This document shows, one piece after another, positions 22,433-37,602 of a stretch of 38,519 nt of DNA. Numbering within the stretch: the stretch's first letter is position 1; every line of letters begins with the position of its first letter. The notes beneath the pieces were generated by a model. It had not been told where the DNA came from. It saw nothing but the letters and a program-made list of their open reading frames with translations, and ran no database searches. The DNA is from Candidatus Gastranaerophilales bacterium. Its GTDB lineage: Bacteria; Cyanobacteriota; Vampirovibrionia; Gastranaerophilales; Gastranaerophilaceae. A program made the position numbers and the translations under genes. The DNA lies in the NCBI GenBank assembly GCA_017467305.1, contig JAFTSM010000074.1, forward strand, positions 1 through 38,519, read 5' to 3'.

Positions 22433-22460
22433 GTACATAAAATGAAAGATATAGATATCT

Positions 22461-23762: not shown

Positions 23763-23763
23763 A

Positions 23764-24759
23764 ATGGAAAAAATTTTTAAAGTGATTTCTATTGTACTAA
23801 TATTTGTAGTTTTTTTATATTTTGTATTAGATTATTTCTTATACAAGACTCATTCTCTTTCTTTACAAAGAGAATTAAAAAAAGAAAATATTTTTGTAGA
23901 AATACCAGCGTATTATACTTATTTCTTTAAAAATTATGGTGAAACGTTGAGTTCATTTAAAGAAAAGTATGTTGATGGTGAACATCCTAATTTTAGAAAG
24001 CCAAATATAAGCAATGAATATACTAAACCATCAATAATTATTTTTGGTTGTTCATTTGCTTATGGTAGTTACCTAAATGATGAAGAAACATTTTCAGCAA
24101 AATTGTCAAAATATACAAGAAGGAATGTATTCAATCGTGCATTGTCTGGTTGTGGTATACAGCATATGTTCTATTTTTTACAAGACGAAAAATTTTTCAA
24201 TCACATTTCTTCAGATACTAAATATGTTGTATATGTATACATCGAAAATCAAATTGAACGTTTGAACGCAACAATTTTTCCTCATTCTATATTTAGAAAT
24301 GGTACAAATTTAAGATATGAGATACTTAATGATAAATTATCTTTAAAAAGGGATATTCCTTTTGTTGATAAGTCTTTTCTATTACGAAAAATTATTCTTT
24401 TGCTAGATAGCAAAGTTGATATTACTTCAGATATTATGAAGAAAAAAAATTCAGAATTAGCAGTTAAGTTATTTGTTGAAAGCAAAAAAAAGTTGCAAGA
24501 AAAATATTCAGATATTAAGTTCATTATTCTAAAATACAATTATGATTATTATGAAGTGATAAGTAATTATAAAGAAGTAAATATAGAAGATTCAGATATG
24601 TGGAAAGAACTTGAAGAACAAGGATTCATTGTGATGAATACAAAGGATTTGCTCGGCTTTGCATATTCAAAAGAGTATACGACAGAAGACAAATATCATC
24701 CTTCAGCAAGAGCTTGGGATTTGTTAGTGCCAAAACTAGCAGAAAAATTAAGCTTATAA
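23764..24759 (+). CDS. membrane-anchored SGNH/GDSL-type hydrolase
   Basis: A 331-residue protein with one N-terminal membrane segment (about 8-27) and a periplasmic SGNH hydrolase-like domain. Block I is G-C-S-F-A-Y-G with nucleophile S97, block II is around A-L-S-G-C-G, and the C-terminal D309-K-Y-H312 supplies the catalytic Asp-His. Such proteins remove or transfer acetyl or other acyl groups on polysaccharides. It starts one base after the PurD-like gene, so the ATP-grasp pair and this enzyme probably form an operon that decorates a glycan. Its stop overlaps the convergent acyltransferase gene by six bases. Confidence 0.8.
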   Translation: MEKIFKVISIVLIFVVFLYFVLDYFLYKTHSLSLQRELKKENIFVEIPAYYTYFFKNYGETLSSFKEKYVDGEHPNFRKPNISNEYTKPSIIIFGCSFAYGSYLNDEETFSAKLSKYTRRNVFNRALSGCGIQHMFYFLQDEKFFNHISSDTKYVVYVYIENQIERLNATIFPHSIFRNGTNLRYEILNDKLSLKRDIPFVDKSFLLRKIILLLDSKVDITSDIMKKKNSELAVKLFVESKKKLQEKYSDIKFIILKYNYDYYEVISNYKEVNIEDSDMWKELEEQGFIVMNTKDLLGFAYSKEYTTEDKYHPSARAWDLLVPKLAEKLSL

Positions 24760-25488
24760 ACTAATATTTTCCTTAATCATATCAGAAATAACTTTTCTCA
24801 ATTTGATGTCAGTGGTATCAGGTGTTTTGTAGTCTGATATTTTGATATTTTCTTTTCTCGTAATTTCGAAAGTTATAACATTTTTGCCTACATCAAGTGG
24901 AAAGTGGTTTTTTATTAGTACTGGGTAATCTGCTTTTATTGTAATAGGTATAATATCAACATTTGCATTAATAGCAATTTGAGCTGAACCCTTATGTATT
25001 TTAAGTTCTTCATTTGGTAAGGTTCTTGTACCAGTCGGAAAAATTATTATATTAAAACCGTTTTCTAGTGCTTCTTTTGTTTCTTTTTTGAAGTCTTCTA
25101 AATCAACATCATTGATAATATATAAGTATTTTACAATGTTGTGCATAATAGGGTTTTTAAGTAGTTCTTTTTTTGCTAGACATAAGCAGTTTGGAATTAG
25201 TCCGATCAAAAGAACAATATCTAATAAACTAGGGTGATTTGCTACAATTACCTTGCCATTAATGTTTGAAAAATCACCATTAGTTTCTATTTTTATAGAG
25301 CCAAATTTGCATAATAAACTGCTAAAAAATTTCCAAGATTTATGTACTACATTTGCACAAAATTTCCTATGTTCTAATCCTTTATACTTTAATGTACTAA
25401 AGGGGATTATAACTAGACCAATAAGAAGTCCACCAATAGCAAAAATAAACATTTCAAGTATTACAATTAATGCTCTAAGAACTCTCAC
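24754..25488 (-). CDS. apeD: lysophospholipid-type acyltransferase of the APE cluster
   Basis: A 244-residue PlsC-family acyltransferase. The active-site N-H-P-S-L-L-D (H85, D90) and the F-P-T-G-T-R-T block that binds the acceptor phosphate are intact, and an N-terminal hydrophobic anchor spans about 8-30. I start it at GTG 25488, one base after the upstream stop and behind a C-G-A-G-G ribosome binding site; an upstream ATG would overlap the preceding gene by 77 bases. In characterised aryl polyene clusters an acyltransferase of this type (ApeD) helps attach the polyene to a lipid anchor. It forms a minus-strand pair with the ketosynthase-like gene. Confidence 0.82.
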   Translation of the reverse strand: MRVLRALIVILEMFIFAIGGLLIGLVIIPFSTLKYKGLEHRKFCANVVHKSWKFFSSLLCKFGSIKIETNGDFSNINGKVIVANHPSLLDIVLLIGLIPNCLCLAKKELLKNPIMHNIVKYLYIINDVDLEDFKKETKEALENGFNIIIFPTGTRTLPNEELKIHKGSAQIAINANVDIIPITIKADYPVLIKNHFPLDVGKNVITFEITRKENIKISDYKTPDTTDIKLRKVISDMIKENISL

Positions 25489-25489
25489 A

Positions 25490-26092
25490 TTAACCTCGTT
25501 CCAAAGAATATAGGTTAGACGTAAAAGAAGTTGTTTCCCCTTTAAGAAAAGAGATGATATTATCAAAAGAATTTGAAGAACCTTTTTTATTGAAATCGAT
25601 TGTTATTTCAATAGAGTTTTCATTTTGTTTTTCTTTTGAAATTGATAGTGCTAAACTTTCTAAATTTTCATTGTTTTCTGTATAACAGAAGATAACGTCA
25701 TCTGTTTTGCTATCTAAAACGGCTTCTAAAAGAGCATTTGTAAGTGTATCTTTGCCAGCAGAAATAGAATTGTAAGAAGATTTAATTGAATTTAAAAGTG
25801 AAAATAAACCAATAGTTGCATTATGAACAGAAAAACTAAAGCCAGTAGGTGAAATTTCGCCTTCTTCTTGTCTTTGGTTAATTAATTTTTTTACTCTTTC
25901 AATATCACCATAGCAAGATGCAAATATTAGTTTTGTCTGTTTATTTTGTTCATAAACATTATAAAGGCTATAGAGAGCCGCTTTGCCAAAATTATCAAGT
26001 TTTCTTCTCATAAGCATAGGAATAAAAGATAAATCTGGAATTTCATCTTTTACAAATACGTATTTATTAATATAAAACTTGTAGCAATTCAT
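25490..26092 (-). CDS. apeC: ketosynthase-like partner protein (ApeC-type, chain length factor-like)
   Basis: A 200-residue protein matching the short beta-ketoacyl synthase N-terminal-like family found in aryl polyene clusters. It has the I-F-A-S-C-Y-G-D strand, S-P-T-G-F-S-F-S-V-H-N-A and S-A-G-K-D-T-L motifs, but no Cys-His-His triad, so it cannot condense by itself. In the Xenorhabdus APE system the corresponding ApeC pairs with the ketosynthase ApeO in a KS-CLF-like dimer; here the presumed partner is the divergent neighbour at 26134. I chose ATG 26092; 19 extra codons upstream would run through the divergent promoter. Confidence 0.78.
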   Translation of the reverse strand: MNCYKFYINKYVFVKDEIPDLSFIPMLMRRKLDNFGKAALYSLYNVYEQNKQTKLIFASCYGDIERVKKLINQRQEEGEISPTGFSFSVHNATIGLFSLLNSIKSSYNSISAGKDTLTNALLEAVLDSKTDDVIFCYTENNENLESLALSISKEKQNENSIEITIDFNKKGSSNSFDNIISFLKGETTSFTSNLYSLERG

Positions 26093-26107
26093 GATAATAT
26101 TAATATT

Positions 26108-26115
26108 AGTATAAT
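26108..26115. promoter_or_regulatory. overlapping divergent -10 elements, apeC/apeO
   Basis: The 41-base spacer between the two divergent start codons holds TATAAT on the plus strand (26110-26115) and TATACT on the minus strand (26108-26113). The hexamers share four positions, so RNA polymerase can occupy only one direction at a time. Predicted leaders are short, about 12 and 8 bases. No -35 boxes stand out. Confidence 0.45.
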
Positions 26116-26133
26116 GGTGGTTTAATTGCAAAA

Positions 26134-27207
26134 ATGATAAATATAACAAAAGTTGCAGCAGTTTGTAATTTAGGTAGAAATATTGATGAGATATTCAATA
26201 GTGCTTGTAGTGGTAAAAACTTGCCACATAAAATAGATTTTGAATTGCCTAAAATAGAAGATAAAAAATACAATTTAAGATGTAATCAACTGTTGCTAGA
26301 ACTTTATAACCAGATAAAAATTGATGTTGATAATGCAATTAAAAAATATGGTAAAGATAGAGTTGGAGTTGTTGTTGCAACTACTAATTCTGGTATTGAT
26401 GAGTATGAAGACACATTGAATTTAGACCATTTAAAAATATCCAATCCTAGTGAATATTTAAAAGATTTGTTGTGTTTAAATAGTTTTTATTGTTGTGTAT
26501 CAACTGCTTGTACATCTGGTGTTAAGGCTTTTTCAACTGCAAAAAAACTATTAGAAAACAATATTTGTGATTGTGTTATAGTTGCTGGTGTTGACCCAAT
26601 TGCCAAATTACCAGTTGCGGGCTTTTCAGCATTAGAAGTTCTAACGAATACAAGAACAAATCCTTTTTCTAAAAACCGTTGTGGAATGAATATTGGTGAA
26701 GGTGCTGCTTTATTTATTCTAGAAAAAGATGTTGATGGTATTAAATTAATGGGTATTGGTGAAACTTCTGATGCTTATAACGCAGCAACTCCTGACCCTG
26801 AAGCAAAAGAAGCTATTCGTGCTATTAAAATTGCGCTAAAAGAAGCCAATCTAAAGCCAGAACAAATAGATTATATTAATTTGCATGGAACAGGTACAAT
26901 TGCTAATGATTTAATGGAGGCGAGAGCTGTTAATGAAGTTTTTGGTACAGAAGTCTATTGTAGCTCTACAAAACCTTTAACTGGTCATTGTTTAGGCGCG
27001 GCTGCAAGTATAGAAACCGCCTTGTGTATTAAAATATTAGAAACTGGTATTATGCCACCACATATTTTTGATTGTGAATATGATGATGAATTACCAAAGA
27101 TAAAGTTGGTTACTGATAAAAATTTAAAAGCAGAAAAAATGGATGTATGTATGAGTAATTCTTTCGGCTTTGGTGGAACAAACGCAATATTGATTTTAGG
27201 AAAGTAG
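26134..27207 (+). CDS. apeO: beta-ketoacyl-ACP synthase (ApeO-like)
   Basis: A 357-residue condensing enzyme of the FabF/FabB thiolase fold that would elongate the polyene with malonyl-ACP units. The triad is complete: C126 in S-T-A-C-T-S-G, H251 in N-L-H-G-T-G-T, and H285 in T-G-H-C-L-G-A. It is shorter than FabF, as is normal for APE-type members. It heads the main plus-strand operon, and the ketosynthase-like protein on the other side of the divergent promoter is its likely dimer partner. The ATG has little Shine-Dalgarno sequence. Confidence 0.88.
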   Translation: MINITKVAAVCNLGRNIDEIFNSACSGKNLPHKIDFELPKIEDKKYNLRCNQLLLELYNQIKIDVDNAIKKYGKDRVGVVVATTNSGIDEYEDTLNLDHLKISNPSEYLKDLLCLNSFYCCVSTACTSGVKAFSTAKKLLENNICDCVIVAGVDPIAKLPVAGFSALEVLTNTRTNPFSKNRCGMNIGEGAALFILEKDVDGIKLMGIGETSDAYNAATPDPEAKEAIRAIKIALKEANLKPEQIDYINLHGTGTIANDLMEARAVNEVFGTEVYCSSTKPLTGHCLGAAASIETALCIKILETGIMPPHIFDCEYDDELPKIKLVTDKNLKAEKMDVCMSNSFGFGGTNAILILGK

Positions 27208-27210
27208 AAG

Positions 27211-27663
27211 ATGTCTTACGATTTAGAAAAAATATTACCTCATGATAGACCAATGATTTTGGTTGATGATATTAAAGAAATCAATCTTGATGAAAAGTAT
27301 TTAATTGCAGAAGTTAAGATTACGGAAGATAAAATCTTTTTTGATAAAACAATAAATGGTGTTCCTTATTTATCTGGTATAGAGTATATGGCTCAAACTA
27401 TTGGTTGTTATGCATTTTATCGTGCACAAAGAACAGAACCAAAGCTTGGTTTTTTGTTGGGAACTCGTTCTTATAAGAGTAATATTGAAAAGTTTGAAAA
27501 TGGTAAAACTTATACTGTCAAAGTGTCTGAAATATATGGTGATAATGAACTTGTATCGTTCAGCTGTTTAATTTATAATGATGAAGAAAGAGAGTGTGCT
27601 AGTGCAGTAATTAATGCGTATCAACCAGATAACGCTGAGGAATATTTAAAAAACGGGTTTTAG
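27211..27663 (+). CDS. apeP: hot-dog fold dehydratase (ApeP-like)
   Basis: This 150-residue hot-dog protein resembles 3-hydroxyacyl-ACP dehydratases. It begins with the family motif L-P-H-D-R-P-M-I-L-V-D (catalytic H11) and has G-V-P-Y-L-S-G-I-E-Y-M-A-Q with a second acidic residue, E58. It would remove water after each ketoreduction to give the conjugated double bonds. In the studied APE system ApeP works in complex with ApeI; here the ApeI-like domain is the C-terminal part of the ligase encoded at 30571. The gene follows the ketosynthase by three bases. Confidence 0.88.
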   Translation: MSYDLEKILPHDRPMILVDDIKEINLDEKYLIAEVKITEDKIFFDKTINGVPYLSGIEYMAQTIGCYAFYRAQRTEPKLGFLLGTRSYKSNIEKFENGKTYTVKVSEIYGDNELVSFSCLIYNDEERECASAVINAYQPDNAEEYLKNGF

Positions 27664-27667
27664 GAAT

Positions 27668-28396
27668 ATGGAAAAACAAGTTCTAGTAACGGGTTCAAGT
27701 CGTGGTATAGGAAGAGAAATTGCGTTGTATCTAGCTAAAAATGGCTTTGATATTGTGCTTCATTGTAATAAAAATGCAACCAAAGCTAATGAAGTAAAAG
27801 AAGAAATTATTTCTTTAGGTCGCAATGCTAGAGTTCTTCAATTTAACATTGCAAATAGGGAAGAATGTTCAAAAGTTATAAATGAAGACATTGAAAAAAA
27901 TGGTATTTATTATGGGACTGTTTTAAATGCAGGTATTGCAAAGGATAATGTATTTCCAGTAATGGAAGAAGATGAATGGGATGATGTTTTAAATACAAAT
28001 CTTGGTGGTTTTTATAATGTTTTAAAGCCAATCATTATGCCTATGATTGCTAACAGAGTTAAAGGTAGAATTGTAACAATGTCATCAGTATCTGGTTTGG
28101 CTGGTAATCGTGGACAAGTTAACTATTCTGCTTCAAAAGCAGGTATTATAGGTGCTACAAAAGCTTTAAGTTTAGAACTCGCAAAACGTGGGATTACAGT
28201 TAACTGTGTTGCTCCTGGTGTTATTGAAACTGATATGACAACTGAACTTCCAGTTGATGAAGTTAAAAAGATGATACCAATGAAACGTTTTGGTAAAACA
28301 AAAGAGGTTGCTTCTTTAGTTAATTATTTAATGAGTGAAGATGCTTCATACATAACTGGTCAAGTAATTTCTGTTAATGGAGGCTTGTACTTATAA
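27668..28396 (+). CDS. apeQ: 3-oxoacyl-ACP reductase (ApeQ, FabG family)
   Basis: A 242-residue short-chain reductase that reduces the beta-keto group with NADPH. The cofactor motif T-G-S-S-R-G-I-G is at 8-15, N-A-G at 87-89, and the catalytic S140, Y153 and K157 lie in S-S-V-S-G and Y-S-A-S-K. The C-terminal P-G-V-I-E-T-D-M and I-T-G-Q-V-I-x-V-N-G-G are standard FabG signatures. Its context inside the cluster marks it as the polyene ketoreductase rather than the housekeeping FabG. Its TAA shares a base with the next ATG (TAATG), so translation is coupled. Confidence 0.93.
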   Translation: MEKQVLVTGSSRGIGREIALYLAKNGFDIVLHCNKNATKANEVKEEIISLGRNARVLQFNIANREECSKVINEDIEKNGIYYGTVLNAGIAKDNVFPVMEEDEWDDVLNTNLGGFYNVLKPIIMPMIANRVKGRIVTMSSVSGLAGNRGQVNYSASKAGIIGATKALSLELAKRGITVNCVAPGVIETDMTTELPVDEVKKMIPMKRFGKTKEVASLVNYLMSEDASYITGQVISVNGGLYL

Positions 28397-29619
28397 TGAA
28401 AAGAGTTGTTATTACCGGCATGGCTCTTGCTAGCCCTTTAGGTTGTACTAGAGAAAAAGCATTTGACAGTTTATTGACATTAAAAAACTGTGTTCAATAT
28501 ATGCCAGAACTTGAACAATATGAAAGACTAAATGCTAAATTATGTGCGCCAGTAAAAGATTTTGTTATGCCAGAGCACTTTAATAGAAAAGTTCTTAGAA
28601 CTATGGGACCAGTTTCTGTAATGAGCGTTGCAACTGCAGAAGAAGCACTAAAAGATGCTGGTTTATTGGGTGATGAAATTATAACTAATGGTCAAACTGG
28701 TGTTAGTTATGGTTCTTCATCTGGCTCTTTAGAACCATTGATTGATTTTCATTCATTACAAGTATCAAAAGAAGTTAAAAACGTAAATTCTGGTACGTAT
28801 GTAAAAATGATGGCTCAAACTACTGCAGTTAATTTGTCTTTATACTTTAAAACTACTGGTAGATTAATTCCAACATCAACTGCTTGTACATCTGGTTCTA
28901 TGGGTATTGGTTATGCGTATGAAGCAATTAAATATGGTCATCAAACAGTTATGTTAGCTGGTGGTGCTGAAGAACTTCACGTATCTCAAATAGCAGTATT
29001 TGATACTTTATATGCAACAAGCCAAAAGAACTCTACTCCTACATTAACTCCATCACCATTTGATAAAAATAGAGATGGTTTAGTTATTGGTGAGGGTGCG
29101 GGTACTTTAGTTTTAGAAGAGTATGAACACGCTAAAAAACGTGGTGCTAAAATATATGCTGAAATTATTGGTTTTGGTACAAGTACAGATGGAACACATA
29201 TCACATCACCAAACCAAGATACAATGAAAAATGCTTTAGCATTGGCATTAAAAGATGCAAATGTTTCACCTGATGAAATTGATTATGTAAATGCTCACGG
29301 AACGGCAACAACTCATGGTGACGTTGCTGAAACAAATGCTACTTATGAAATATTCAAAAGGCCAGTTCCTATAAGTTCATTAAAGAGTTATACTGGTCAC
29401 ACTCTTGGCGCTTGTGGTGCAATCGAGGCTATTTTATCAATAGATATGGCTCATAAAAACTGGTTTGCACCAACAATTAATTTGAACGAAGTTGATGAAA
29501 AATGTGGAGCTTTAGATTATATAAAAGGCGAAGGTAGAGAGATAAAAACACGTCTAATAATGTCTAATAACTTTGCGTTTGGCGGCATAAATACTTCCTT
29601 GATTTTCAAGTGTATGTAA
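28396..29619 (+). CDS. apeR: beta-ketoacyl-ACP synthase (ApeR-like)
   Basis: A second, full-length condensing enzyme of 407 residues with C164 in S-T-A-C-T-S-G, H301 in N-A-H-G-T-A-T and H335 in T-G-H-T-L-G-A, plus the D-K-x-R-D-G-x-V-x-G-E-G-A-G segment. It belongs with the FabF-like ApeR proteins, which act as homodimers and are thought to handle the first elongation or a subset of chain lengths. Two active ketosynthases in one cluster are the rule for aryl polyenes. It ends the first block of the operon; a candidate internal promoter follows. Confidence 0.9.
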   Translation: MKRVVITGMALASPLGCTREKAFDSLLTLKNCVQYMPELEQYERLNAKLCAPVKDFVMPEHFNRKVLRTMGPVSVMSVATAEEALKDAGLLGDEIITNGQTGVSYGSSSGSLEPLIDFHSLQVSKEVKNVNSGTYVKMMAQTTAVNLSLYFKTTGRLIPTSTACTSGSMGIGYAYEAIKYGHQTVMLAGGAEELHVSQIAVFDTLYATSQKNSTPTLTPSPFDKNRDGLVIGEGAGTLVLEEYEHAKKRGAKIYAEIIGFGTSTDGTHITSPNQDTMKNALALALKDANVSPDEIDYVNAHGTATTHGDVAETNATYEIFKRPVPISSLKSYTGHTLGACGAIEAILSIDMAHKNWFAPTINLNEVDEKCGALDYIKGEGREIKTRLIMSNNFAFGGINTSLIFKCM

Positions 29620-29626
29620 TTTGACT

Positions 29627-29654
29627 TTGTATAGTAAACATGAGTAAATATAAT
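29627..29654 (+). promoter_or_regulatory. internal promoter before the carrier proteins
   Basis: TTGTAT (29627-29632) and TATAAT (29649-29654) are 16 bases apart in the 52-base gap between the second ketosynthase and the first ACP, which is the largest gap within the plus-strand run from 26134 to 35177. It could boost the carrier-protein and downstream genes. A G-G-G-A lies nine bases before the ATG at 29672. Confidence 0.45.
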
Positions 29655-29671
29655 TAATTGGGATTAAGAAT

Positions 29672-29929
29672 ATGACAATTGAAAACGAATTAAAAGAATT
29701 AATTATAAAATCATTAGAGTTAGAAGATATTACAGTTGATGATATTGAAGATGAAGCTCCACTATTCATAGATGGTCTTGGTCTTGATTCTATTGACGCA
29801 CTTGAACTTGGTATGGCTTTAAAGAAAAAGTACAATTTAAAAATGAGTTCAAATAAAGAAGAAAATAAAAAATATTTTTATTCAGTAAAAACTTTAGCTG
29901 ATTATGTTAGGAGTAATGCTGGTGAGTAA
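29672..29929 (+). CDS. apeE: acyl carrier protein (ApeE-like)
   Basis: An 85-residue acyl carrier protein. The phosphopantetheine attachment site is S40 in G-L-D-S-I-D-A-L-E, in the usual four-helix layout (M-T-I-E-N-E-L-K-E-L-I-I first helix, D-E-A-P-L-F loop). In the Xenorhabdus system the first ACP receives the aromatic starter from the adenylating enzyme. It must be activated by a PPTase, and one is encoded at 35587 on the minus strand. It overlaps the second ACP gene by eight bases. Confidence 0.9.
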   Translation: MTIENELKELIIKSLELEDITVDDIEDEAPLFIDGLGLDSIDALELGMALKKKYNLKMSSNKEENKKYFYSVKTLADYVRSNAGE

Positions 29930-30176
29930 AGAATATACAAGAGAAGAAATTTATAACAAATTACATGAAATTCTTGTTCAAGATTTTGAACTTGATGAAG
30001 AATTGGTTAAGCCAGAAGCTAATTTGTTTGAAGATTTAGAACTTGATAGTATTGATGCTGTTGATTTAGCAGTTAAATTGCAATTCTTTACTAACAAAAA
30101 GATTTCTCCAGAAAATTTTAAAGAAATTAGAACTGTTGATGATGTGGTAACTGCAGTAGAAGAATTGTTGAAATGA
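29922..30176 (+). CDS. apeF: acyl carrier protein (ApeF-like)
   Basis: A second acyl carrier protein, 84 residues from the GTG at 29922, with S43 in L-E-L-D-S-I-D-A-V-D. I prefer this GTG because an AGGAG motif lies eight bases upstream and carrier proteins of this type begin about here; an ATG six bases earlier crowds the ribosome binding site. It overlaps the stop of the first ACP and ends in an ATGA overlap with the membrane protein gene. The two carriers differ widely, which suggests separate tasks (starter loading and chain extension). Confidence 0.88.
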   Translation: MSKEYTREEIYNKLHEILVQDFELDEELVKPEANLFEDLELDSIDAVDLAVKLQFFTNKKISPENFKEIRTVDDVVTAVEELLK

Positions 30177-30574
30177 AGCTAAAATTTTTAGTTTCTATTT
30201 TAATCACTTTATCAGTAATTGTATTATTTCATTATACTCAAATTTTTTTAGTTAAATTTTATCCAGTTTGTGCAAATTTAACTGTATTTTTAGTATTTTT
30301 TATTTCTTCCTTCAAAGAAGAAACAGTTATTCAAAAGTTTGCAAAAGCTGTTGATGGAGAACTAAGTGAGGGTGCTTTAAAATACACAAGAAATCTTACT
30401 TATGTATGGGCAGGGCTTACATTCTTTAATTTTGTCGCTTCATTGGTATCTGTATTTATGAGTACAAAATTTTGGGCTTTGTATAATGGTTTAATATCTT
30501 ATGTTTTAATCGGTACTTTGTTTTTTGTAGAATATATAGTAAGAATAGTCTTGAAAAAGAAAAACATTATATGA
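30173..30574 (+). CDS. apeG: small integral membrane protein (ApeG/COG4648-like)
   Basis: A 133-residue protein with about four membrane segments (roughly 3-21, 28-45, 73-93 and 100-125) and a conserved loop K-F-A-K-A-V-D-G-E-L-S. This matches the small membrane protein that sits between carrier proteins and ligase in APE and flexirubin clusters (COG4648). Its role is not established; recruiting the soluble enzymes to the inner membrane is a fair guess. It overlaps both neighbours by ATGA. Confidence 0.8.
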   Translation: MKLKFLVSILITLSVIVLFHYTQIFLVKFYPVCANLTVFLVFFISSFKEETVIQKFAKAVDGELSEGALKYTRNLTYVWAGLTFFNFVASLVSVFMSTKFWALYNGLISYVLIGTLFFVEYIVRIVLKKKNII

Positions 30575-32118
30575 TTCTGGATAGGTTTTATACAAACAAA
30601 TTTGATAATGAAGTTGTTTTAAAAATTGGCGATAAGAATATTTCTTATGCTGAATTAAAACAATATGTTTCATTTCAAATAGAAGCTTTTAAACAAGAAA
30701 AAGCTAATTCTGTTGTTTTGTTTGGTGATAATTCTTTTGAATTTGTTGTTAACTTTTTCTCTGCATTATTTAGTCAAAAAGAAATTTATCTTTTAACAGA
30801 TAAGAATAGATTATCAATGTTAAAGTTTGATTATTTTCTTCCTAGAACACCACAAAAAGGGCAAGTTATAGAATTTGAAGAAATAGATATAGAAGAAACA
30901 AAAATCAACTTTTTTACTTCTGGTTCTACTTCAACACCTAAAGTTATAACAAAGAATTTTTTTAATCTGTTAGAAGAAGCAAAAGCTATTTCTAATCAAT
31001 TTGTTTTTTCTAATAATATAAATTTCTATTCAACAACAATAATGTCACATATGTTTGGCTTAACTTTTCATTTTATGTTGCCTTTGTATTTAGGATGTGT
31101 AATTTGTACGGAAAAAGTAGAGTTTCCAGAACAAATGGAAAACAAAGAAAATTATATTTTGATTTCATCACCATCATTTTTAGAAAAAATGTATAAGTAT
31201 GAGATACATTTTCCTTCTTCACCCAAAAGAATAATTACAGCTGGTGATAAGTTAAAAGAGAATGTTTGTGAATTTTTTAATAAAAAATCTGATATTATAG
31301 AAATATATGGAAGTACTGAAACTGGTGTTATAGCCTTTAAAAATAACACTAAAAACTTTAAAAAGTTTGATATGGTTAGTATTTCTCAAGATGAAAATAA
31401 TTGCATTGTTGTAAAATCTAAATTTTTTATGGAAGAAGAAGTAAAAATGGAAGATGTTATAGAACAAATATCAGATGAAGAATTTACCTTAAAAGGAAGA
31501 AACGATAGATTAGTAAAAATTAAAGAAAAGAGAATATCTTTAGTAGAGTTAGAAGCTAAGTTGAAAGAACACTCTTCTGTAAATGATTGTTATTGCTTTA
31601 AATTTGGTGAAGTTTTAGCTTGTATGGTTTCAACAAATGATATTAATTTAAATGAGAAAATTTTAAAAGAACATCTTTTAAAATACTCAGAAATTGTTCC
31701 TAAAAAATGGCGTTTTCTTGATGAAATACCTAAAACAGATACTGGTAAAATTGATAAACAATCAATAGAACAAATATTTGGAATGAATTTATCTTATCCA
31801 TTTATAGTTAGTAGAAAAATAGAAGAAAATAGAGCAGAATTAGAATTGATATTTAGAAAAAATTCTAATTTTTTTCAAGGTCATTTTTCTGTAATGCCTA
31901 TTCTTCCTGGTGTTGTTCAATTGTTTTATGCAAATTATTTTGCTAAGAAAATTTTTAAAATAGAAATACCTTGTGATGAAGCAAAAAGGGTAAAATTTAC
32001 TAATATAATTAAAGCAGATGATAAAATTACATTAGTTTTAAATAAAAAAGAAAAAGGCATAGAATATATCTATATGGTTAATGACAAATCATATTCATCA
32101 GGTATATTTGTTTTATAA
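30571..32118 (+). CDS. apeH: adenylating ligase fused to a dehydratase domain (ApeH-ApeI)
   Basis: This 515-residue protein joins two APE enzymes. Residues 1-400 are an AMP-forming acyl ligase: P-loop-like T-S-G-S-T-S-T-P-K (116-124), I-Y-G-S-T-E-T-G (245-252), the hinge L-K-G-R-N-D-R (307-313) and catalytic K393 in T-G-K-I-D. It should activate the aromatic starter acid and load it on an ACP. Residues about 405-515 form a hot-dog dehydratase with G-H-F-S-V-M-P-I-L-P-G-V (H438), matching ApeI. The two are separate genes in the E. coli cluster; fusion here would keep them equimolar. The starter acid is unknown, as no chorismate lyase or ammonia lyase gene is nearby. Confidence 0.87.
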   Translation: MILDRFYTNKFDNEVVLKIGDKNISYAELKQYVSFQIEAFKQEKANSVVLFGDNSFEFVVNFFSALFSQKEIYLLTDKNRLSMLKFDYFLPRTPQKGQVIEFEEIDIEETKINFFTSGSTSTPKVITKNFFNLLEEAKAISNQFVFSNNINFYSTTIMSHMFGLTFHFMLPLYLGCVICTEKVEFPEQMENKENYILISSPSFLEKMYKYEIHFPSSPKRIITAGDKLKENVCEFFNKKSDIIEIYGSTETGVIAFKNNTKNFKKFDMVSISQDENNCIVVKSKFFMEEEVKMEDVIEQISDEEFTLKGRNDRLVKIKEKRISLVELEAKLKEHSSVNDCYCFKFGEVLACMVSTNDINLNEKILKEHLLKYSEIVPKKWRFLDEIPKTDTGKIDKQSIEQIFGMNLSYPFIVSRKIEENRAELELIFRKNSNFFQGHFSVMPILPGVVQLFYANYFAKKIFKIEIPCDEAKRVKFTNIIKADDKITLVLNKKEKGIEYIYMVNDKSYSSGIFVL

Positions 32119-32133
32119 GCAAATGGAGAGATT

Positions 32134-32547
32134 ATGTTATATCAAGCAGAAACAATTTTAAAGGTAGAATTTTATGACTTAGATCCAATGAATGTGGTCT
32201 GGCATGGTAACTATGTTAAATATTTAGAAGCTGCTAGATGTGATATGTTAAATAAATTAGGCTATAACTATATGGATATGCGTAATGACGGTTTTGCATT
32301 TCCTATTGCTACAGTAGATATGAAATATATTAAGCCTTGTGTGTTTAACCAAGAGTTAAAAGTTGTTTCTATGGTTGAAGAAATAGAACCTTGTTTAATT
32401 ATTAAATATACAATTTTTGATAATAAGACTGGTGAAAAGTTATTTAAAGCAAAAACTATGCAAATATGTGTTGATATTAATACACAACAAAGTGTTTATG
32501 AAGCACCAGAAAATTTGAAAAAAAAGCTCGCTTGTTGTAAAGTTTAA
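32134..32547 (+). CDS. apeK: acyl-ACP thioesterase (ApeK, 4HBT family)
   Basis: A 137-residue hot-dog thioesterase of the 4-hydroxybenzoyl-CoA type. The active-site region is V-E-F-Y-D-L-D-P-M-N-V-V-W-H-G-N-Y with the catalytic Asp at 17, followed by a long helix Y-L-E-A-A-R. It could release the finished polyene, or edit stalled chains. A GGAGAG motif precedes the ATG. It sits between the ligase and the LolA-like gene, as in the known clusters. Confidence 0.9.
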   Translation: MLYQAETILKVEFYDLDPMNVVWHGNYVKYLEAARCDMLNKLGYNYMDMRNDGFAFPIATVDMKYIKPCVFNQELKVVSMVEEIEPCLIIKYTIFDNKTGEKLFKAKTMQICVDINTQQSVYEAPENLKKKLACCKV

Positions 32548-32550
32548 GGT

Positions 32551-33069
32551 ATGAAAAGACCTTTATTGCTTTTAATTTCTTTATTTGTAATGTCTTCAGC
32601 AGATGCTAGTGAAGATGTTTTTAATCATAAGGTTGAAACAGATGCTATACAGATAGCACCATTTAGTGATGTTACTTGTAAATTTGAGCAAGAGAAGTCA
32701 TTACCTAATTCTAATCAAACAATTAAATCTGGTGGTGATTTCCAATTTGTATTAAAAAAAGGTGTTATTTTTGAAACTCAATATCCAGTAAAATATACAA
32801 CTTCATATACTTCAAAAGAAAATAAATATGTGAATGATATTATAGTTGGAATTTCTAAAAAGAATTTTTCTCATATAGAAAAGAACTTTGATATTTTCTT
32901 TCAAAAGCAAGAATCTAAATGGGTATTGGGTTTAATACCAAAAACAGAAACTCCAGCATCAACTCAATTAAAAAACATAATTATATTTGGCGAAAAAGAT
33001 ATTGATAGAATAGTTATTGATACTATCAACAACGGAAGTACAAAACTTAAATTTACGCAGTGTAAGTAA
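32551..33069 (+). CDS. apeL: LolA-like periplasmic carrier (ApeL)
   Basis: A 172-residue secreted protein with a signal peptide ending near S-S-A-D-A-S (about residue 20) and a LolA-like half-barrel. The signs are V-T-C-K-F-E-Q-E-K, G-G-D-F-Q-F-V-L-K-K-G-V-I-F-E-T, and I-I-I-F-G-E-K-D-I-D-R-I-V. LolA itself ferries lipoproteins; relatives in APE clusters are believed to ferry the lipid-linked polyene across the periplasm. The two cysteines (about C43 and C171) could form a disulfide. It overlaps the exporter gene by one base. Confidence 0.83.
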   Translation: MKRPLLLLISLFVMSSADASEDVFNHKVETDAIQIAPFSDVTCKFEQEKSLPNSNQTIKSGGDFQFVLKKGVIFETQYPVKYTTSYTSKENKYVNDIIVGISKKNFSHIEKNFDIFFQKQESKWVLGLIPKTETPASTQLKNIIIFGEKDIDRIVIDTINNGSTKLKFTQCK

Positions 33070-35177
33070 TGATTAAAATATTAAGAGTATTATTTATAGT
33101 TTTATTTCTGGCACTTTTTGTATCTGCTTTTTTGAACCCTGCAAAACCAGAAACTAATATTTTAAAAGCAGTTTTACAAGAAAATCAAAAATCAGAATTA
33201 ATAATTAATTTAAGTAATCAGTTTTCTTCTAAAATAAATGTTTTAATTGAAGCTGATGAAGAAAAGACTTGTGAAACAATTTCAAAAGATTTTGTATCTA
33301 AAATAGATAATGAGTTTTTCAAAATTAAAAAAGTTGATTATGCTTCCGCATTTAAAATGTATGAAAAATATAATCAAAATTTTTTATCAACTAATACAAG
33401 AACTTTATTGTTGAATAAAGACTACGAAGTAGTTAAACAACAAGCTTTTGAAAGATTAATTAACCCAATAGGCTTTTCAGTTCTTCCATTAGAAAAAGAC
33501 CCATTTTTATTATTTACAGATTACTTAATGAGTCTTTCTTCTAATTCTCAAATAGGAAGCACAATCAACTATAACGATAAATATTATATGTATTTGTCAT
33601 TAGAACTTGGTGGAAATTCGCTATCTCCAACAGTTATTAATGAAAAGATAAAAGAACTAATTAAAGTATCCGAAGAATATGACAAAATCTATTTGACTGG
33701 TGTTCCTATCCATTCTTATTATGCTAGTTCAAAATCAATAATAGAAATAAACGTAATTTGCGTTTTATCAACTATATTTTTAATTGCTTTATTTTTCTTC
33801 TATTTTAGAAATTTAAAATTAATGCTTCCAGCCTTTTTAAGTTTGACTTTAGGAATGGCAGGCGGATATTCATTAGTATCCTTGTTATTTGATAAAGTTC
33901 ACGTATTAACATTTGTGTTTTCTACAACGTTGATTGGTATTTGTATTGATTATTCACTTCATTATTTTATAGAAAAAGATTTAAAGAAAATAATAAAAAG
34001 TTTAACTGTAGGGTTACTTACAACTTGTTCTGCTTTTGTTGTTTTAACTTTTTCCGGAATGGAATTATTAAAACAAATTTCTTTATTTACAATAATGGGA
34101 TTGGCTAGTGTTTATTCTTTTATCGTTTTATTTTATCCATTAATTTGTAAAAATATTTTTAAAGATTATGAACGTAAAATTTCTTTCAATATTAAATATA
34201 AAAAGATAGTTCTAGCAGTTCTTTTATTTGTAATTGTTTTGGGATTTTTAAAATTAAAATTTAATGATGATATTAAAAATATGTATATTCCATCTAAAAA
34301 ACTTTTATATGCAGAAAGACTTTTCTCTGATGTTACAAAGGCAAATCATAAAACATCTTTTGCTATTGTTGAGGGAAAAAATATAGAAGAAATTCTTCAA
34401 AAAGAAGAAGTTGTTGCAGATTCTTTTAATGAGTATCAAGCTATTTCAAAATATATTCCATCTAAAAAAAGACAGTTAGAAAATTTGAATTTAAGAGAAG
34501 AATTATATAAAAAATCATTAGAAGAGTATGCTTCATTTTTAACTGTTGAACAAAAGAAAAATCTTTTAAACGTTAATAAAAATGATTTAATTGAATATGA
34601 TAATTCATCATTATTATCTGAATTTATGTTTGATAAAAATAAATCAATAATGGTTTTATATAATGCAGAAAATAAAGAATATACTATGCCAGAGGGTGTT
34701 GAATATATTGATTTAAAAACAGAAATTTCATCGAAGATAAAAGATTATAGAGAACAATGTATTTCATTACTTTTACCAATTTTATTGATGTTGTTAGGTG
34801 TTTTATCTTTTATTTATAGGAACTTTGTTAAAGCGGTGAGAATAGTTGTTCCATCATTATTTGCTGCTACATTCTCAATTGGCTTTACAAGTCTTTTAAG
34901 TCCAATAAATATGTTTCATATTTTGGCTATATTTTTAATAGTTGGTTTTGGTTTAGATTACTCTATTTTTAGAGCAAGTGGAGTTAAAAATTCAACCTCT
35001 GCAGTATTTCTTTCTTGTGCAACAAGTGTATTTTCATTTCTGTTACTAGCTTTTACAAGCTTTAAATTAATTAGTTCATTAGGTGTTATTTTATCTGTAG
35101 GACTTTTAACTTCATATATTTTAAGTTTGGTTTTGATTCCAAAAGCTGGATTAGATGAAAATAAAGAAAGCATATAG
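33069..35177 (+). CDS. apeM: MMPL/RND-type exporter (ApeM)
   Basis: A 702-residue MMPL-family transporter with the duplicated plan of the RND superfamily: one membrane segment, a periplasmic loop, five segments, then the same again. Each half holds the family signature, I-D-Y-S-L-H-Y near residue 298 and L-D-Y-S-I-F-R near 635. Such proteins move lipids and polyketides out of the inner membrane (for example mycobacterial MmpL). With the LolA-like protein next door it should hand the lipid-linked polyene to the outer membrane. Its last 73 codons are overlapped by the antisense reading frame of the PPTase gene. Confidence 0.9.
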   Translation: MIKILRVLFIVLFLALFVSAFLNPAKPETNILKAVLQENQKSELIINLSNQFSSKINVLIEADEEKTCETISKDFVSKIDNEFFKIKKVDYASAFKMYEKYNQNFLSTNTRTLLLNKDYEVVKQQAFERLINPIGFSVLPLEKDPFLLFTDYLMSLSSNSQIGSTINYNDKYYMYLSLELGGNSLSPTVINEKIKELIKVSEEYDKIYLTGVPIHSYYASSKSIIEINVICVLSTIFLIALFFFYFRNLKLMLPAFLSLTLGMAGGYSLVSLLFDKVHVLTFVFSTTLIGICIDYSLHYFIEKDLKKIIKSLTVGLLTTCSAFVVLTFSGMELLKQISLFTIMGLASVYSFIVLFYPLICKNIFKDYERKISFNIKYKKIVLAVLLFVIVLGFLKLKFNDDIKNMYIPSKKLLYAERLFSDVTKANHKTSFAIVEGKNIEEILQKEEVVADSFNEYQAISKYIPSKKRQLENLNLREELYKKSLEEYASFLTVEQKKNLLNVNKNDLIEYDNSSLLSEFMFDKNKSIMVLYNAENKEYTMPEGVEYIDLKTEISSKIKDYREQCISLLLPILLMLLGVLSFIYRNFVKAVRIVVPSLFAATFSIGFTSLLSPINMFHILAIFLIVGFGLDYSIFRASGVKNSTSAVFLSCATSVFSFLLLAFTSFKLISSLGVILSVGLLTSYILSLVLIPKAGLDENKESI

Positions 35178-35587
35178 TCTGGTAAAAGTTTAAAACAGAT
35201 TTTTTGTTTTGTTTCCGCTTGGATTTTTATTTCTGCTTCATATTCTGTCCAAAATTGGTAGAACAAATCTTTGCTATCAGAATTGATGTTATAGCGTTCT
35301 AGAAGAGTTTTAAAATCCCTTTCTTTCATATATTCAATATCAAGCCCAAGTGGCATAATATCAAATGCAACTGCTATAATATCTTTTGAATGTGAAATGT
35401 TAAAACATAGTTCTGAATTTTTAAATTTGGGTTTTTCATTTTCTACAATTATTTCTGAATTTTTTACATCATAAAAAACTTCTGCAATTTGTTTTGCTAG
35501 GTGTCTACCCATTTGTGATTGCAGTTTTCTTTTTTCTACTCGCTTTAATTCAGAGGTATTTTTTAACTCAATATATAAAATCTTCAT
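34958..35587 (-). CDS. Sfp-type 4'-phosphopantetheinyl transferase with antisense tail
   Basis: The first roughly 145 residues are a PPTase, which would transfer phosphopantetheine from CoA to the serines of the two cluster ACPs. Key residues are visible: F-N-I-S-H-S at 62-67, D83 and E85 in G-L-D-I-E, and W113-T-E-Y-E117-x3-K121. The domain seems to end near Y-M-L-S-L-F (139-144). The frame stays open for about 65 more codons, antisense to the exporter gene, for a convergent overlap of 220 bases. This tail looks unrelated to PPTases and may result from a lost stop codon. A -10 TAAAAT six bases before the ATG implies a leaderless transcript. Confidence 0.82.
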   Translation of the reverse strand: MKILYIELKNTSELKRVEKRKLQSQMGRHLAKQIAEVFYDVKNSEIIVENEKPKFKNSELCFNISHSKDIIAVAFDIMPLGLDIEYMKERDFKTLLERYNINSDSKDLFYQFWTEYEAEIKIQAETKQKICFKLLPDYMLSLFSSNPAFGIKTKLKIYEVKSPTDKITPNELINLKLVKASNRNENTLVAQERNTAEVEFLTPLALKIE

Positions 35588-35599
35588 GTTATAATTTTA
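35587..35599. promoter_or_regulatory. overlapping divergent promoters, PPTase/methyltransferase
   Basis: Only 17 bases separate the two start codons. The plus strand has the extended -10 TGT-TATAAT (35587-35595) for the methyltransferase at 35605; the minus strand has TAAAAT (35594-35599) for the PPTase at 35587. The hexamers overlap by two bases. Both transcripts would have leaders of zero to about three bases. The extended -10 includes bases of the PPTase start codon itself. Confidence 0.5.
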
Positions 35600-35604
35600 T
35601 CACT

Positions 35605-36690
35605 ATGGATAAAAAAGACACAACTACGCAATATAGAAGAAATAGAAAAAAAGGTGCAAGTGTTGTTGAATGTTTAGCAAAGGCTCAAGAAATTTGTTTT
35701 GCACCATTTACCTTCCAAACAATAGCTACAATGCTAGATTTGGGTATTATGCAGTATTTAAAAGATAATTCTGCTACACTTGAACAAGTTATGGAACATT
35801 GTAAAATATCAAAATACTGTGCTAAAACTGTTTTTGAAGTCGCAATTTTGGCTGATGTTGTTGAAATGGAAGATGATAAATTTACACTTTCACGTTTGGG
35901 TGAAACCTTCTTAGATAATGAAATGACAAGAGTTAACTTTAACTTTATGCGTGATTGTTGTTATTTAGGGGCTAGTGAATTAAAAGAATCATTTGTTCAA
36001 GGTAAACCAGTTGGACTTCAAAAGTTTATAGAAAACTCCCCAACGATTTATCCTTTGTTGACTAAACTACCACCTCATATTCAAAAAAGTTGGTATGAAT
36101 TTGACCATTATTATTCTGATACTTGTTTTGATGAAGTGTTAGATATTATGTTTAGACATAATCCCAAATCTGTTTTTGATATCGGTGGGAATACTGGTAA
36201 GTTTGAAAAGGCTTGTCTAAATTATAGTAAAGACGTAAACCTTACAATGCTTGATTTACCAGAAAACTTAGATAGAGCGAAAGCTAATATTAATAATGAT
36301 AGATGTAATTTTTGTGGCATAAATGTTATATCTGAAAATCCTAAATTTCCTAAAATGAGTGGTGCTGTTCTAATGAGTCAGTTTTTAGATTGTTTTTCAG
36401 AAGAACAAATTATTTCTATTCTATCTAATGTTGCAAAAGTTGCAGAGGATGGAACAAGAGTTTATATTTTAGAACCATTTATTGACAATCAACAATTTAA
36501 AGGTGCAGCGTATTCTCTAACTCATATTTCTTTATATTTTACTTGTATGGCAAATGGTACAAGCAAAATGTATAGCGAAAAGGATATGATTGAATTTGTT
36601 GAAAAAGCTGGTCTAAAAGTGAGTGCAAAACATACTATAGGTATTCACGATTACACTCTATTGGAGTGCGTAAAAAATGAAATGGTATGA
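35605..36690 (+). CDS. apeB: SAM-dependent O-methyltransferase (ApeB-like)
   Basis: A 361-residue class I methyltransferase with the two-domain plan of small-molecule O-methyltransferases. The N-terminal winged-helix domain for dimerisation is around T-M-L-D-L-G-I-M-Q-Y-L and L-S-R-L-G-E. The Rossmann domain has V-F-D-I-G-G-N-T-G (motif I), M-L-D-L-P-E and the later L-M-S-Q-F-L-D. In APE clusters the ApeB-type enzyme methylates the aromatic head. I start at ATG 35605; a longer frame upstream would cross the divergent PPTase start. Its end overlaps the next gene by 14 bases. Confidence 0.84.
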   Translation: MDKKDTTTQYRRNRKKGASVVECLAKAQEICFAPFTFQTIATMLDLGIMQYLKDNSATLEQVMEHCKISKYCAKTVFEVAILADVVEMEDDKFTLSRLGETFLDNEMTRVNFNFMRDCCYLGASELKESFVQGKPVGLQKFIENSPTIYPLLTKLPPHIQKSWYEFDHYYSDTCFDEVLDIMFRHNPKSVFDIGGNTGKFEKACLNYSKDVNLTMLDLPENLDRAKANINNDRCNFCGINVISENPKFPKMSGAVLMSQFLDCFSEEQIISILSNVAKVAEDGTRVYILEPFIDNQQFKGAAYSLTHISLYFTCMANGTSKMYSEKDMIEFVEKAGLKVSAKHTIGIHDYTLLECVKNEMV

Positions 36691-37570
36691 AGCTAAAGAA
36701 CAAGCAGCTGGCGTAAAAAGGCTTTTTCTTTTATGGTATATCTATAAAATTTTAGGTAAAAATGTAGTTAAATTTATAACTTTCTTTGTCACATTTTTTG
36801 CGTGTCTTGGTGCTAAAGAAGTTAGAAAATGTTCAAAAAGATATCTGGAAATTATAGGTATTAAACCAACTTTTAATAATGTTTTTAAGCATTTTTTATC
36901 TTATTCATATTCACTCGTTGATAGAGTTGAGATATTTTCTAATAATTTTAATCCTCAAAAATTATATTTTAAAGATGAAAAGCAAAAGGACTTATTGTTA
37001 GATGATTTAAAAGCTGGTAACGGTGTATTTTTTATTTGTAATCATCTAGGTAATGTTGATGCAATGCGTGCTTTTGTAAATTCAGATATTAAAGATACTT
37101 GTACAAGTATTTCAGTTTTCCTTGCAAGAGAACAGTGTAAAATTTTTGGTGGTTTTATAAATAAAATTACTAAAAATGAAAAAATATTTTTAAATGCTGT
37201 AGAAGATATTGATATTAATACTTCAATTGAAATTCAAGAACGATTGAATAATGGAGGTATCGTTTTTATGGCTGGTGATAGGACATCAGCAAATAGTATT
37301 AATTTTGAGGCGGAATTTTTAGGGCATAGTGTGCAATTTCCAATGGGAACATTTAAGTTTGCGCAAATGATGGAAGTACCTATTTATTTTGTAAGTGCTA
37401 TTAAAATGCCAAAAGATAAGTATTCAATTCATCTTAAAAAGTTTGAAAATGCAGAAAATAAGCGTAAATCAATGACTAAAATGCAAACAGAATTTATAAG
37501 TTTTTTAGAAGAAAAAACAAAATTAGCCCCTTTTCAATTCTATCATTTTTATAATTTGTTTGAAGAGTAG
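36677..37570 (+). CDS. LpxL/HtrB-type acyltransferase of the APE cluster
   Basis: A 297-residue lipid-A-biosynthesis-type acyltransferase. An N-terminal hydrophobic stretch (about 15-45) anchors it in the inner membrane. The catalytic N-H-L-G-N-V-D holds H123 and D128, and G-D-R-T-S-A further on marks the second block. In several APE clusters this domain is fused to a GT2 glycosyltransferase (ApeJ); here no glycosyltransferase part is present. Together with the PlsC-type enzyme at 24754 it could acylate the anchor that holds the polyene in the outer membrane. It overlaps the methyltransferase gene and ends the cluster. Confidence 0.83.
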   Translation: MKWYEAKEQAAGVKRLFLLWYIYKILGKNVVKFITFFVTFFACLGAKEVRKCSKRYLEIIGIKPTFNNVFKHFLSYSYSLVDRVEIFSNNFNPQKLYFKDEKQKDLLLDDLKAGNGVFFICNHLGNVDAMRAFVNSDIKDTCTSISVFLAREQCKIFGGFINKITKNEKIFLNAVEDIDINTSIEIQERLNNGGIVFMAGDRTSANSINFEAEFLGHSVQFPMGTFKFAQMMEVPIYFVSAIKMPKDKYSIHLKKFENAENKRKSMTKMQTEFISFLEEKTKLAPFQFYHFYNLFEE

Positions 37571-37597
37571 TATAATAATTAACGTATTTGTGGGGAG
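37571..37597 (+). promoter_or_regulatory. promoter and ribosome binding site of the last gene
   Basis: TATAAT (37571-37576) starts directly after the acyltransferase stop. A purine-rich GGGGAGAGG ribosome binding site lies just before the ATG at 37603. This sets the start at 37603 rather than an upstream TTG (37588), which would place the ribosome binding site inside the coding region. The gene is probably its own transcription unit. Confidence 0.5.
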
Positions 37598-37602
37598 AGG
37601 TA

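What the first reader, a model, noticed from the sequence alone, without database searches (positions are those of the whole stretch)
24754..37570. Aryl polyene pathway in an apparent cyanobacterial-sister lineage
Seen directly: two complete ketosynthases, a ketosynthase-like partner, ketoreductase, two hot-dog dehydratase domains, two ACPs, adenylating ligase, 4HBT thioesterase, LolA-like carrier, MMPL exporter, PPTase, methyltransferase and two acyltransferases, tightly packed. Known: this set defines aryl polyene clusters, described mainly in Proteobacteria and Bacteroidetes. Inferred: the host is neither, so this would extend the family to a lineage where a membrane-bound antioxidant pigment has not, to my knowledge, been worked out.
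Basis: partly seen in the sequence, partly recalled or inferred. Interest (0 to 1): 0.85.

Follow-up and report, generated by a model that had tools for sequence, protein, structure and literature searches.

The report
Aryl polyene pigment genes in Gastranaerophilales
A gut bacterium from the non-photosynthetic sister group of cyanobacteria carries a nearly complete gene set for aryl polyenes, yellow outer-membrane pigments best known from Proteobacteria and Bacteroidetes, and a key gene of the set is found in many of its relatives.

Summary
In detail: 16 genes at 24754-37570 match the aryl polyene (APE) pathway. Fifteen have a counterpart in the E. coli CFT073 ape cluster (ApeL only weakly); the sixteenth is a PPTase. 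The host belongs to Candidatus Gastranaerophilales (Melainabacteria): two same-genus contigs are records of that name, and RlmN is 83-85% identical in two same-genus genomes against 38-43% in six APE-bearing proteobacterial MAGs. ApeR-like ketosynthases occur in 161 of 384 sampled genomes of the order, 25 of 52 genera. On the tree they stand apart from the proteobacterial ApeR sampled (100/99), and the window's genus holds two ApeR lineages (AU p 3.7e-5). So this is a patchy but established trait of the order, not a stray import from those Proteobacteria. Twists: ApeH and ApeI are fused; ApeN, ApeA and the glycosyltransferase half of ApeJ are missing from the window; and none of three testable routes to the aryl starter was found in 13 of 13 APE-bearing genomes, although 12 of 13 have chorismate synthase. 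I found no report of APE in this lineage in the library held (searches in the report). Known kind of pathway, new lineage; product untested.

The parts
24754..25566 (-). ApeD-like lysophospholipid acyltransferase
   Evidence: Pfam Acyltransferase 64.9 bits; 38% to E. coli ApeD over 125 aa, E 9e-25
25490..26149 (-). ApeC-like chain-length factor (ORF from TTG; the first ATG, at 26092, is the likelier start)
   Evidence: Pfam Ketoacyl-synt_2; only solved relatives 6qsp_B and 7f28_A; E. coli ApeC E 1.8e-14
26134..27207 (+). ApeO-like elongating ketosynthase
   Evidence: 6qsp_A E 4.3e-69; 38% to E. coli ApeO over the full length; ACTSG, HGT and TGH motifs present
27211..27663 (+). ApeP-like dehydratase
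   Evidence: Pfam ApeP-like 69.8 bits; 33% to ApeP
27668..28396 (+). ApeQ-like ketoreductase
   Evidence: 57% to ApeQ; NCBIfam FabG2 364 bits over a cut-off of 338.85
28396..29619 (+). ApeR-like second ketosynthase
   Evidence: NCBIfam PRK09116 653.5 bits over 470; 57% to E. coli ApeR; C164, H301, H335 and the aryl-stacking Y135 and F202 present
29672..29929 (+). ACP 1 (ApeE-like)
   Evidence: 55% to ApeE, E 4e-29; Pfam PP-binding
29904..30176 (+). ACP 2 (ApeF-like)
   Evidence: 59% to ApeF, E 2e-28; Pfam PP-binding
30173..30574 (+). ApeG-like protein
   Evidence: 31% to ApeG, E 9e-17; no Pfam hit
30571..32118 (+). Fused ApeH ligase and ApeI dehydratase
   Evidence: AMP-binding and ApeI-like domains; E. 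coli ApeH and ApeI match consecutive parts; model pLDDT 91, whose best 50 PDB matches are adenylating enzymes (the dehydratase half was not searched on its own)
32134..32547 (+). ApeK-like 4HBT thioesterase
   Evidence: Pfam 4HBT_2; 35% to ApeK
32551..33069 (+). ApeL-like LolA-fold carrier
   Evidence: Model pLDDT 82; PDB ranks 1-26 are LolA chains, best 8t5j E 1.3e-10; E. coli ApeL only E 0.014
33069..35177 (+). ApeM-like RND/MMPL exporter
   Evidence: 23% to ApeM over 655 aa, E 1.3e-34; Pfam MMPL at cut-off
34958..35587 (-). Sfp-like phosphopantetheinyl transferase, overlapping apeM tail to tail by 220 nt
   Evidence: NCBIfam AusB/HetI/AcpT matches below cut-off; overlap kept in 13 of the 15 stretches in which both ORFs were called
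35494..36690 (+). ApeB-like methyltransferase (ORF from TTG; ATG at 35605 is the likelier start)
   Evidence: 39% to ApeB, E 2e-92; NCBIfam FlxJ family 378.5 bits, below its cut-off of 560
36677..37570 (+). Acyltransferase resembling the C-terminal half of ApeJ
   Evidence: Matches ApeJ residues 250-550 of 558, E 1.3e-23; no match to the N-terminal part; no Pfam hit

Best explanation
The stretch is a chromosomal APE biosynthesis and export cluster of a gut Gastranaerophilales bacterium. Inferred mechanism, by transfer from the E. coli and Xenorhabdus work: the PPTase arms two ACPs; the ApeH half of the fused protein adenylates an aromatic acid and loads it on ACP 1; ApeR and the ApeO-ApeC pair extend it with malonyl units, each round reduced by ApeQ and dehydrated by ApeP and/or the ApeI half, with no enoyl reduction, giving a conjugated polyene acid; the methyltransferase decorates the ring; ApeK releases the chain; the two acyltransferases join it to a lipid; ApeM and the LolA-like ApeL carry it to the outer membrane, where it would act as a yellow, radical-quenching lipid. 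Shown here: gene content, host lineage, conserved active-site residues, spread within the order. Not shown: expression, product, starter, location, function.
For: Fifteen of 16 genes match 16 of the 18 E. coli ape genes, one to one or as a fusion (gene names from PMC8253772). Closest solved relatives of ApeO, ApeC and ApeR are 6qsp, 7f28 and 7f27. Residues Y135 and F202, reported to stack the aryl group in A. baumannii ApeR (PMC8358021 abstract), are identical in 12 of 12 aligned Gastranaerophilales rows; the FabF 4qav lacks the Tyr in the alignment, but keeps the Phe. LolA fold predicted for ApeL. ApeR relatives in 161 of 384 genomes of the order.
Against: No ApeN (LolB-like) or ApeA counterpart and no glycosyltransferase half of ApeJ in the window. 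No known aryl-acid source found, so the starter may not be 4-hydroxybenzoate. MMPL, ApeI, ApeL and PPTase calls rest on weak sequence matches. No chemistry.
Confidence: 0.9

Rival explanations
1. The cluster makes a related polyene that is not a standard APE: a flexirubin-like dialkylresorcinol ester or a polyene with a non-aromatic starter.
For: The methyltransferase and reductase also hit flexirubin models (FlxJ family, FlxB) and no aryl-acid source was found.
Against: Both flexirubin models are below cut-off (378.5 of 560; 298.3 of 340 bits), while the reductase passes FabG2; the three KS-type genes of the cluster are assigned to ApeC, ApeO and ApeR, so none is left there for a resorcinol synthase; Y135/F202 kept. 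The rest of the genome was not searched for resorcinol-forming genes.
Confidence: 0.08
2. The contig is a proteobacterial or Bacteroidetes contaminant in the bin.
For: The assembly is a draft in 75 contigs with 2.43% contamination.
Against: RlmN on the same contig is 83-85% identical in two same-genus genomes and 38-43% in six proteobacterial ones; ApeR is 82-84% identical in six other same-genus genomes; base composition does not break between the flank and the cluster.
Confidence: 0.01
3. A recent horizontal import from Proteobacteria.
For: The trait is patchy; gut Alphaproteobacteria share the ApeH-ApeI fusion.
Against: 33 rows that I put in the Gastranaerophilales group lie on one side of a 100/99 branch from 13 of 13 proteobacterial rows; cluster GC 28.0% against 28.9% for 1-21400. 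Other phyla were not sampled, so an old import from an unsampled phylum stays open.
Confidence: 0.05
4. A silent or decaying cluster.
For: ApeN and ApeA are absent from the window; in many relatives the genes are split over two places.
Against: All 16 frames are open; the six ApeR residues looked at are identical in 12 of 12 rows; 18 of 18 searched genomes whose KS locus lacks the ligase hold a relative of it elsewhere.
Confidence: 0.04

Closest known systems
E. coli CFT073 ape cluster (c1186-c1204; fetched as L105)
   Same: ApeB, C, D, E, F, G, H, I, K, L, M, O, P, Q, R and the acyltransferase half of J have counterparts (L weakly)
   Different: ApeH and ApeI fused here; D, C and the PPTase on the opposite strand from the rest; no ApeA, ApeN or glycosyltransferase half of ApeJ; a PPTase inside the cluster, which the E. 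coli cluster lacks (PMC8253772)
Xenorhabdus and Acinetobacter APE ketosynthases (6qsp, 7f27, 7f28; assignment of the codes to these organisms recalled)
   Same: Closest solved relatives; Y135/F202 and catalytic residues of ApeR kept
   Different: ApeO is shorter (357 aa against 400-406 in the chains) with a shorter stretch before the active-site cysteine
APE clusters of gut Alphaproteobacteria and other proteobacterial MAGs (L080, L085, L086, L089, L091, L093, L094)
   Same: ApeR 63-65% identical; ApeD/ApeC divergent from ApeO-P-Q-R; fused ApeH-ApeI in the four aligned, L080, L085, L086 and L089
   Different: Separate ApeR clade; an ORF family u9, a family-2 glycosyltransferase by eye, lies beside the ligase in 6 of 7 and not in the window
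Flexirubin (flx) clusters
   Same: FlxJ-family methyltransferase and FlxB-like reductase resemblance
   Different: Both below NCBI cut-offs; no resorcinol-forming enzyme seen in the window

Membership tests
Aryl polyene (APE) cluster | ApeO-ApeC ketosynthase / chain-length-factor pair | tested here: met
   Best solved relatives are the two chains of 6qsp and of 7f28
Aryl polyene (APE) cluster | Second, FabB-like ketosynthase ApeR with aryl-stacking residues | tested here: met
   7f27 best hit; Y135 and F202 kept in 12 of 12 rows
Aryl polyene (APE) cluster | ApeQ reductase, ApeP and ApeI dehydratases, no enoyl reductase in the cluster | tested here: met
   ApeI part just under the Pfam cut-off but E 3.8e-7 to E. 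coli ApeI; no other reductase among the 16 genes
Aryl polyene (APE) cluster | Two consecutive free ACPs | tested here: met
   29672-29929 and 29904-30176, each closest to its own E. coli counterpart
Aryl polyene (APE) cluster | ApeH ligase that activates an aromatic acid | tested here: inconclusive
   Family and fold met; substrate not testable here
Aryl polyene (APE) cluster | Release, lipid attachment and export: ApeK, ApeD/ApeJ, ApeL, ApeM | tested here: met
   ApeJ only as its acyltransferase half, ApeL mainly by predicted fold
Aryl polyene (APE) cluster | ApeN LolB-like protein and ApeA lipoprotein (in the E. coli cluster; I do not count them as defining for all APE clusters) | tested here: not met
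   None of the 20 window proteins compared matches ApeN or ApeA significantly; the rest of the genome was not searched for them
Aryl polyene (APE) cluster | Yellow aryl polyene product | not testable with these tools
   Needs chemistry
Flexirubin cluster | FlxB reductase and FlxJ methyltransferase at NCBI cut-off | tested here: not met
   298.3 of 340 and 378.5 of 560 bits
Housekeeping FabF | NCBIfam FabF equivalog cut-off 493.75 bits | tested here: not met
   377.0 (28396-29619) and 208.1 bits (26134-27207); another, FabF-like KS is on contig C60

The most novel reading that the evidence does not exclude
Gastranaerophilales make an outer-membrane aryl polyene whose aromatic head group does not come from the routes known for other APE producers: it is taken up from the gut (plant phenolics or other microbes' aromatic acids) or made from chorismate by an unrecognised enzyme. 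The pigment would then tie these bacteria to diet or neighbours. UbiC is likewise not found in 6 of 6 APE-bearing proteobacterial gut MAGs (small genomes whose completeness is not told).
Probability: 0.4. Interest if true: 0.65.

Novelty: new member of a known kind. Interest (0 to 1): 0.5.

Why it matters
Gastranaerophilales are gut relatives of cyanobacteria, largely uncultured (recalled). A key gene of a cell-envelope pigment pathway in about two fifths of the sampled genomes (161 of 384) gives a testable trait: colour, a handle for sorting and isolation, and a reason to ask how a gut fermenter (recalled) uses an antioxidant lipid. It also adds to the APE family a lineage with a fused enzyme and an unexplained starter.

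Tried and rejected
Chorismatase (PF21168) was sought in 20 genomes and not found, but no control genome rang, so this says nothing. A neighbour gene that might make the starter was sought by clustering the unassigned ORFs around 80 loci; no family beyond the window's genes recurs in more than 11 loci, and the most frequent (u0) looks like an antisense ORF over an ACP. Rooting the ApeR tree on the genome's FabF failed (branch length 10, saturated; the FabF row fell inside the Gastranaerophilales group), so the careful tree was built without it. tblastn counts of ApeO cross-match ApeR and are not used. The ligase label of L072 is a distant ligase (32% over a short stretch, E 2.4e-5, on that contig), so L072 is counted as lacking the block. 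PPTase tail conservation cannot be told apart from the constraint of apeM on the other strand.

Rejected: FabF-type fatty acid genes, contaminant contig, recent import from the Proteobacteria sampled (see rivals).
Full report
WHAT IS THERE. The window is one whole contig (C48) of a 1.85-Mb, 75-contig genome, 89% complete. From 24754 to 37570 lie 16 tightly packed genes. Compared with the 18 ape proteins of E. coli CFT073, 15 of the 16 match an ape gene: ApeD, C, O, P, Q, R, E, F, G, H and I (fused), K, L, M, B and the acyltransferase half of J (names after Table 1 of PMC8253772, of which I read parts 1-2 of 7). The match of ApeL is weak by sequence (E 0.014), but its AlphaFold model (mean pLDDT 82) finds LolA structures first (8t5j, E 1.3e-10; ranks 1-26 are LolA chains). 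The sixteenth gene is a PPTase. ApeA and ApeN have no significant match among the 20 window proteins compared.

ARE THE KETOSYNTHASES APE-TYPE? Yes. Against the PDB, 26134-27207 is closest to 6qsp_A and 7f28_B, the reverse-strand partner 25490-26149 to 6qsp_B and 7f28_A (its only two hits), and 28396-29619 to 7f27. I recall 6qsp as ApeO-ApeC of Xenorhabdus and 7f27/7f28 as the Acinetobacter ApeR and ApeO-ApeC; the paper that I opened in part (PMC8358021, part 1 of 4) describes both sets without codes in that part. Its abstract reports that Tyr135 and Phe202 of ApeR stack the aryl group; both are present in the window and in 12 of 12 aligned rows, with the catalytic C164, H301 and H335. The FabF 4qav lacks the Tyr at that place but keeps the Phe, so only the Tyr tells the two apart. 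NCBIfam FabF is far below cut-off (377.0 of 493.75 bits); the genome's other KS, FabF-like, sits on contig C60, 32% identical.

WHO IS THE HOST? Contigs of related genomes reappear, with the same lengths and match positions, as titled records: of the window's genus, G001:C65 as CALUQL010000065.1 and G019:C294 as JAJQFK010000240.1 (both Candidatus Gastranaerophilales bacterium) and G032:C6 as JAFQNF010000026.1 (only 'Bacterium isolate RGIG1973'); of another family of the order, G046:C1 as CAJFVJ010000001.1 (Candidatus Adamsella avium). NCBI places both names in the Cyanobacteriota/Melainabacteria group. RlmN of the window's contig is 83-85% identical in two same-genus genomes, 56-60% in six further genomes of the group and 38-43% in six proteobacterial MAGs; it was not found in one genome titled Brachyspira (16 genomes with the own one). 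rimM, trmD and ruvA domains are also on the contig; no tree of housekeeping genes was made. GC is 28.9% for 1-21400 and 28.0% for the cluster.

HOW WIDESPREAD? Of 59 genomes, the own one included, 13 have a close ApeR (64% identity or more): 10 of 36 of the window's genus, 3 of 22 others of its order, 0 of 1 of the class beyond. In a larger even draw, 161 of 384 genomes of the order match a profile of the family at E up to 1e-130, in 25 of 52 genera; among genomes at least 90% complete and at most 5% contaminated, 132 of 306. The rest of the pathway was not checked in those genomes.

LAYOUT. Of 81 stretches (80 loci and the window), 45 have the ligase on the opposite strand, with ApeD and ApeC, divergent from ApeO-P-Q-R; in 3 (window, L019, L090) it lies downstream of ApeR on the same strand; in 33 there is none in the stretch held, many being cut short (with L072 moved to the last class for the reason given under Tried and rejected). 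Of these 33, I searched 18 genomes for the fused ligase: 18 of 18 have a relative of it elsewhere, 37-52% identical; in 11 the match begins only near residue 101-112 of 515. The fusion is also in the four proteobacterial MAGs that I aligned; the dehydratase residues GHF and PG are invariant in 33 of 33 aligned sequences.

DESCENT. I put rows titled only 'bacterium', Scatousia and Adamsella into the first group. An earlier 63-row tree (55 of the 80 loci) with a saturated FabF branch placed FabF inside the group and is not relied on. The same-genus rows window, G006, L090, L019, L095 and G016 do not form a clade (held together the log-likelihood falls by 278; AU p 3.7e-5; I chose the rows after seeing the identities; G016 is given 9% contamination, but L095 = G019 only 1%). 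So the genus holds two ApeR lineages, by exchange within the order or by old duplication and loss. Bacteroidetes and other phyla were not in the trees, so depth and direction are open.

THE MISSING STARTER. In E. coli the starter 4-hydroxybenzoate comes from UbiC (PMC8253772). UbiC (PF04345) was found in 0 of 19 APE-bearing genomes (13 Gastranaerophilales, 6 proteobacterial); of 14 control genomes only E. coli rang. Aromatic ammonia lyase (PF00221) was found in 0 of 13 (controls 5 of 14) and the Rv2949c-like family (PF01947; recalled as the other chorismate lyase family) in 0 of 13 (controls 3 of 14). Chorismate synthase is in 12 of 13, the miss being a 70% complete genome. Chorismatase: 0 of 20 with no control ringing, uninformative. 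These are family-profile searches of drafts 70-99% complete; a diverged enzyme would be missed.

LITERATURE. Searches of the held library: 'aryl polyene' with Melainabacteria, 2 papers; 'arylpolyene' with Melainabacteria, 1 of the same; 'aryl polyene' with Gastranaerophil-, 1 of the same; 'arylpolyene' with Gastranaerophil-, 0; 'aryl polyene' with Vampirovibrion-, 1; broader searches of which only the first 15-25 papers were listed. In the passages that I read (PMC8863827, PMC9769736, PMC13055281) none assigns an APE cluster to this lineage; the first two assign such clusters to Treponema, Lentisphaerae, Prevotella, Bacteroidetes and Verrucomicrobia, and the third gives its Vampirovibrionaceae MAG another cluster type. 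A review of gut Melainabacteria holds none of six terms on pigments, metabolites or the outer membrane (PMC9029806). A search on starter supply gave 8 listed papers that I did not open beyond PMC8253772. Supplements, preprints and subscription journals were not searched, and genome-mining databases may well list these clusters already.

VERDICT. A real, nearly complete APE cluster in Gastranaerophilales; its ApeR belongs to an order-wide, patchy and apparently long-established set. Known kind, new lineage by the searches above; the head-group supply is the open and most interesting point.

Noticed in passing
window 34958-35177: The PPTase gene and apeM overlap tail to tail on opposite strands by 220 nt. 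The overlap (193-232 nt) recurs in 13 of the 15 stretches in which both ORFs were called; the two others have a shorter PPTase (171-172 aa) beside apeR. PPTase hits by tblastn in further loci (35 of 80) were not examined. A long convergent overlap kept this widely seems unusual to me.
   Followed up: partly
L042, L050, L057, L060: Loci with ApeP-Q-R but no ApeO or ApeC found beside them despite 4-10 kb of upstream DNA (L055 looks alike but is cut by the contig end); their genomes hold a relative of the fused ligase elsewhere. The pathway is split or altered there.
   Followed up: partly
L023: A record titled uncultured Brachyspira carries an ApeR 79% identical to the window's and a Gastranaerophilales-like layout; probably a misnamed or mixed bin. 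RlmN was not found in that genome.
   Followed up: no
window 17076-24759: Next to the cluster lie an RgpF-type rhamnan synthesis protein, a family-2 glycosyltransferase, TupA-like and GARS-type ATP-grasp proteins and a 331-aa protein without a Pfam hit: perhaps a cell-surface locus. The last three are found in 0, 1 and 1 of the 80 loci; the first two were not compared.
   Followed up: no
window 37588-38097: A 169-aa protein with, by eye, a signal-like start and a lysine/glutamate-rich tail; no Pfam hit and no relative in any of the 80 loci.
   Followed up: no
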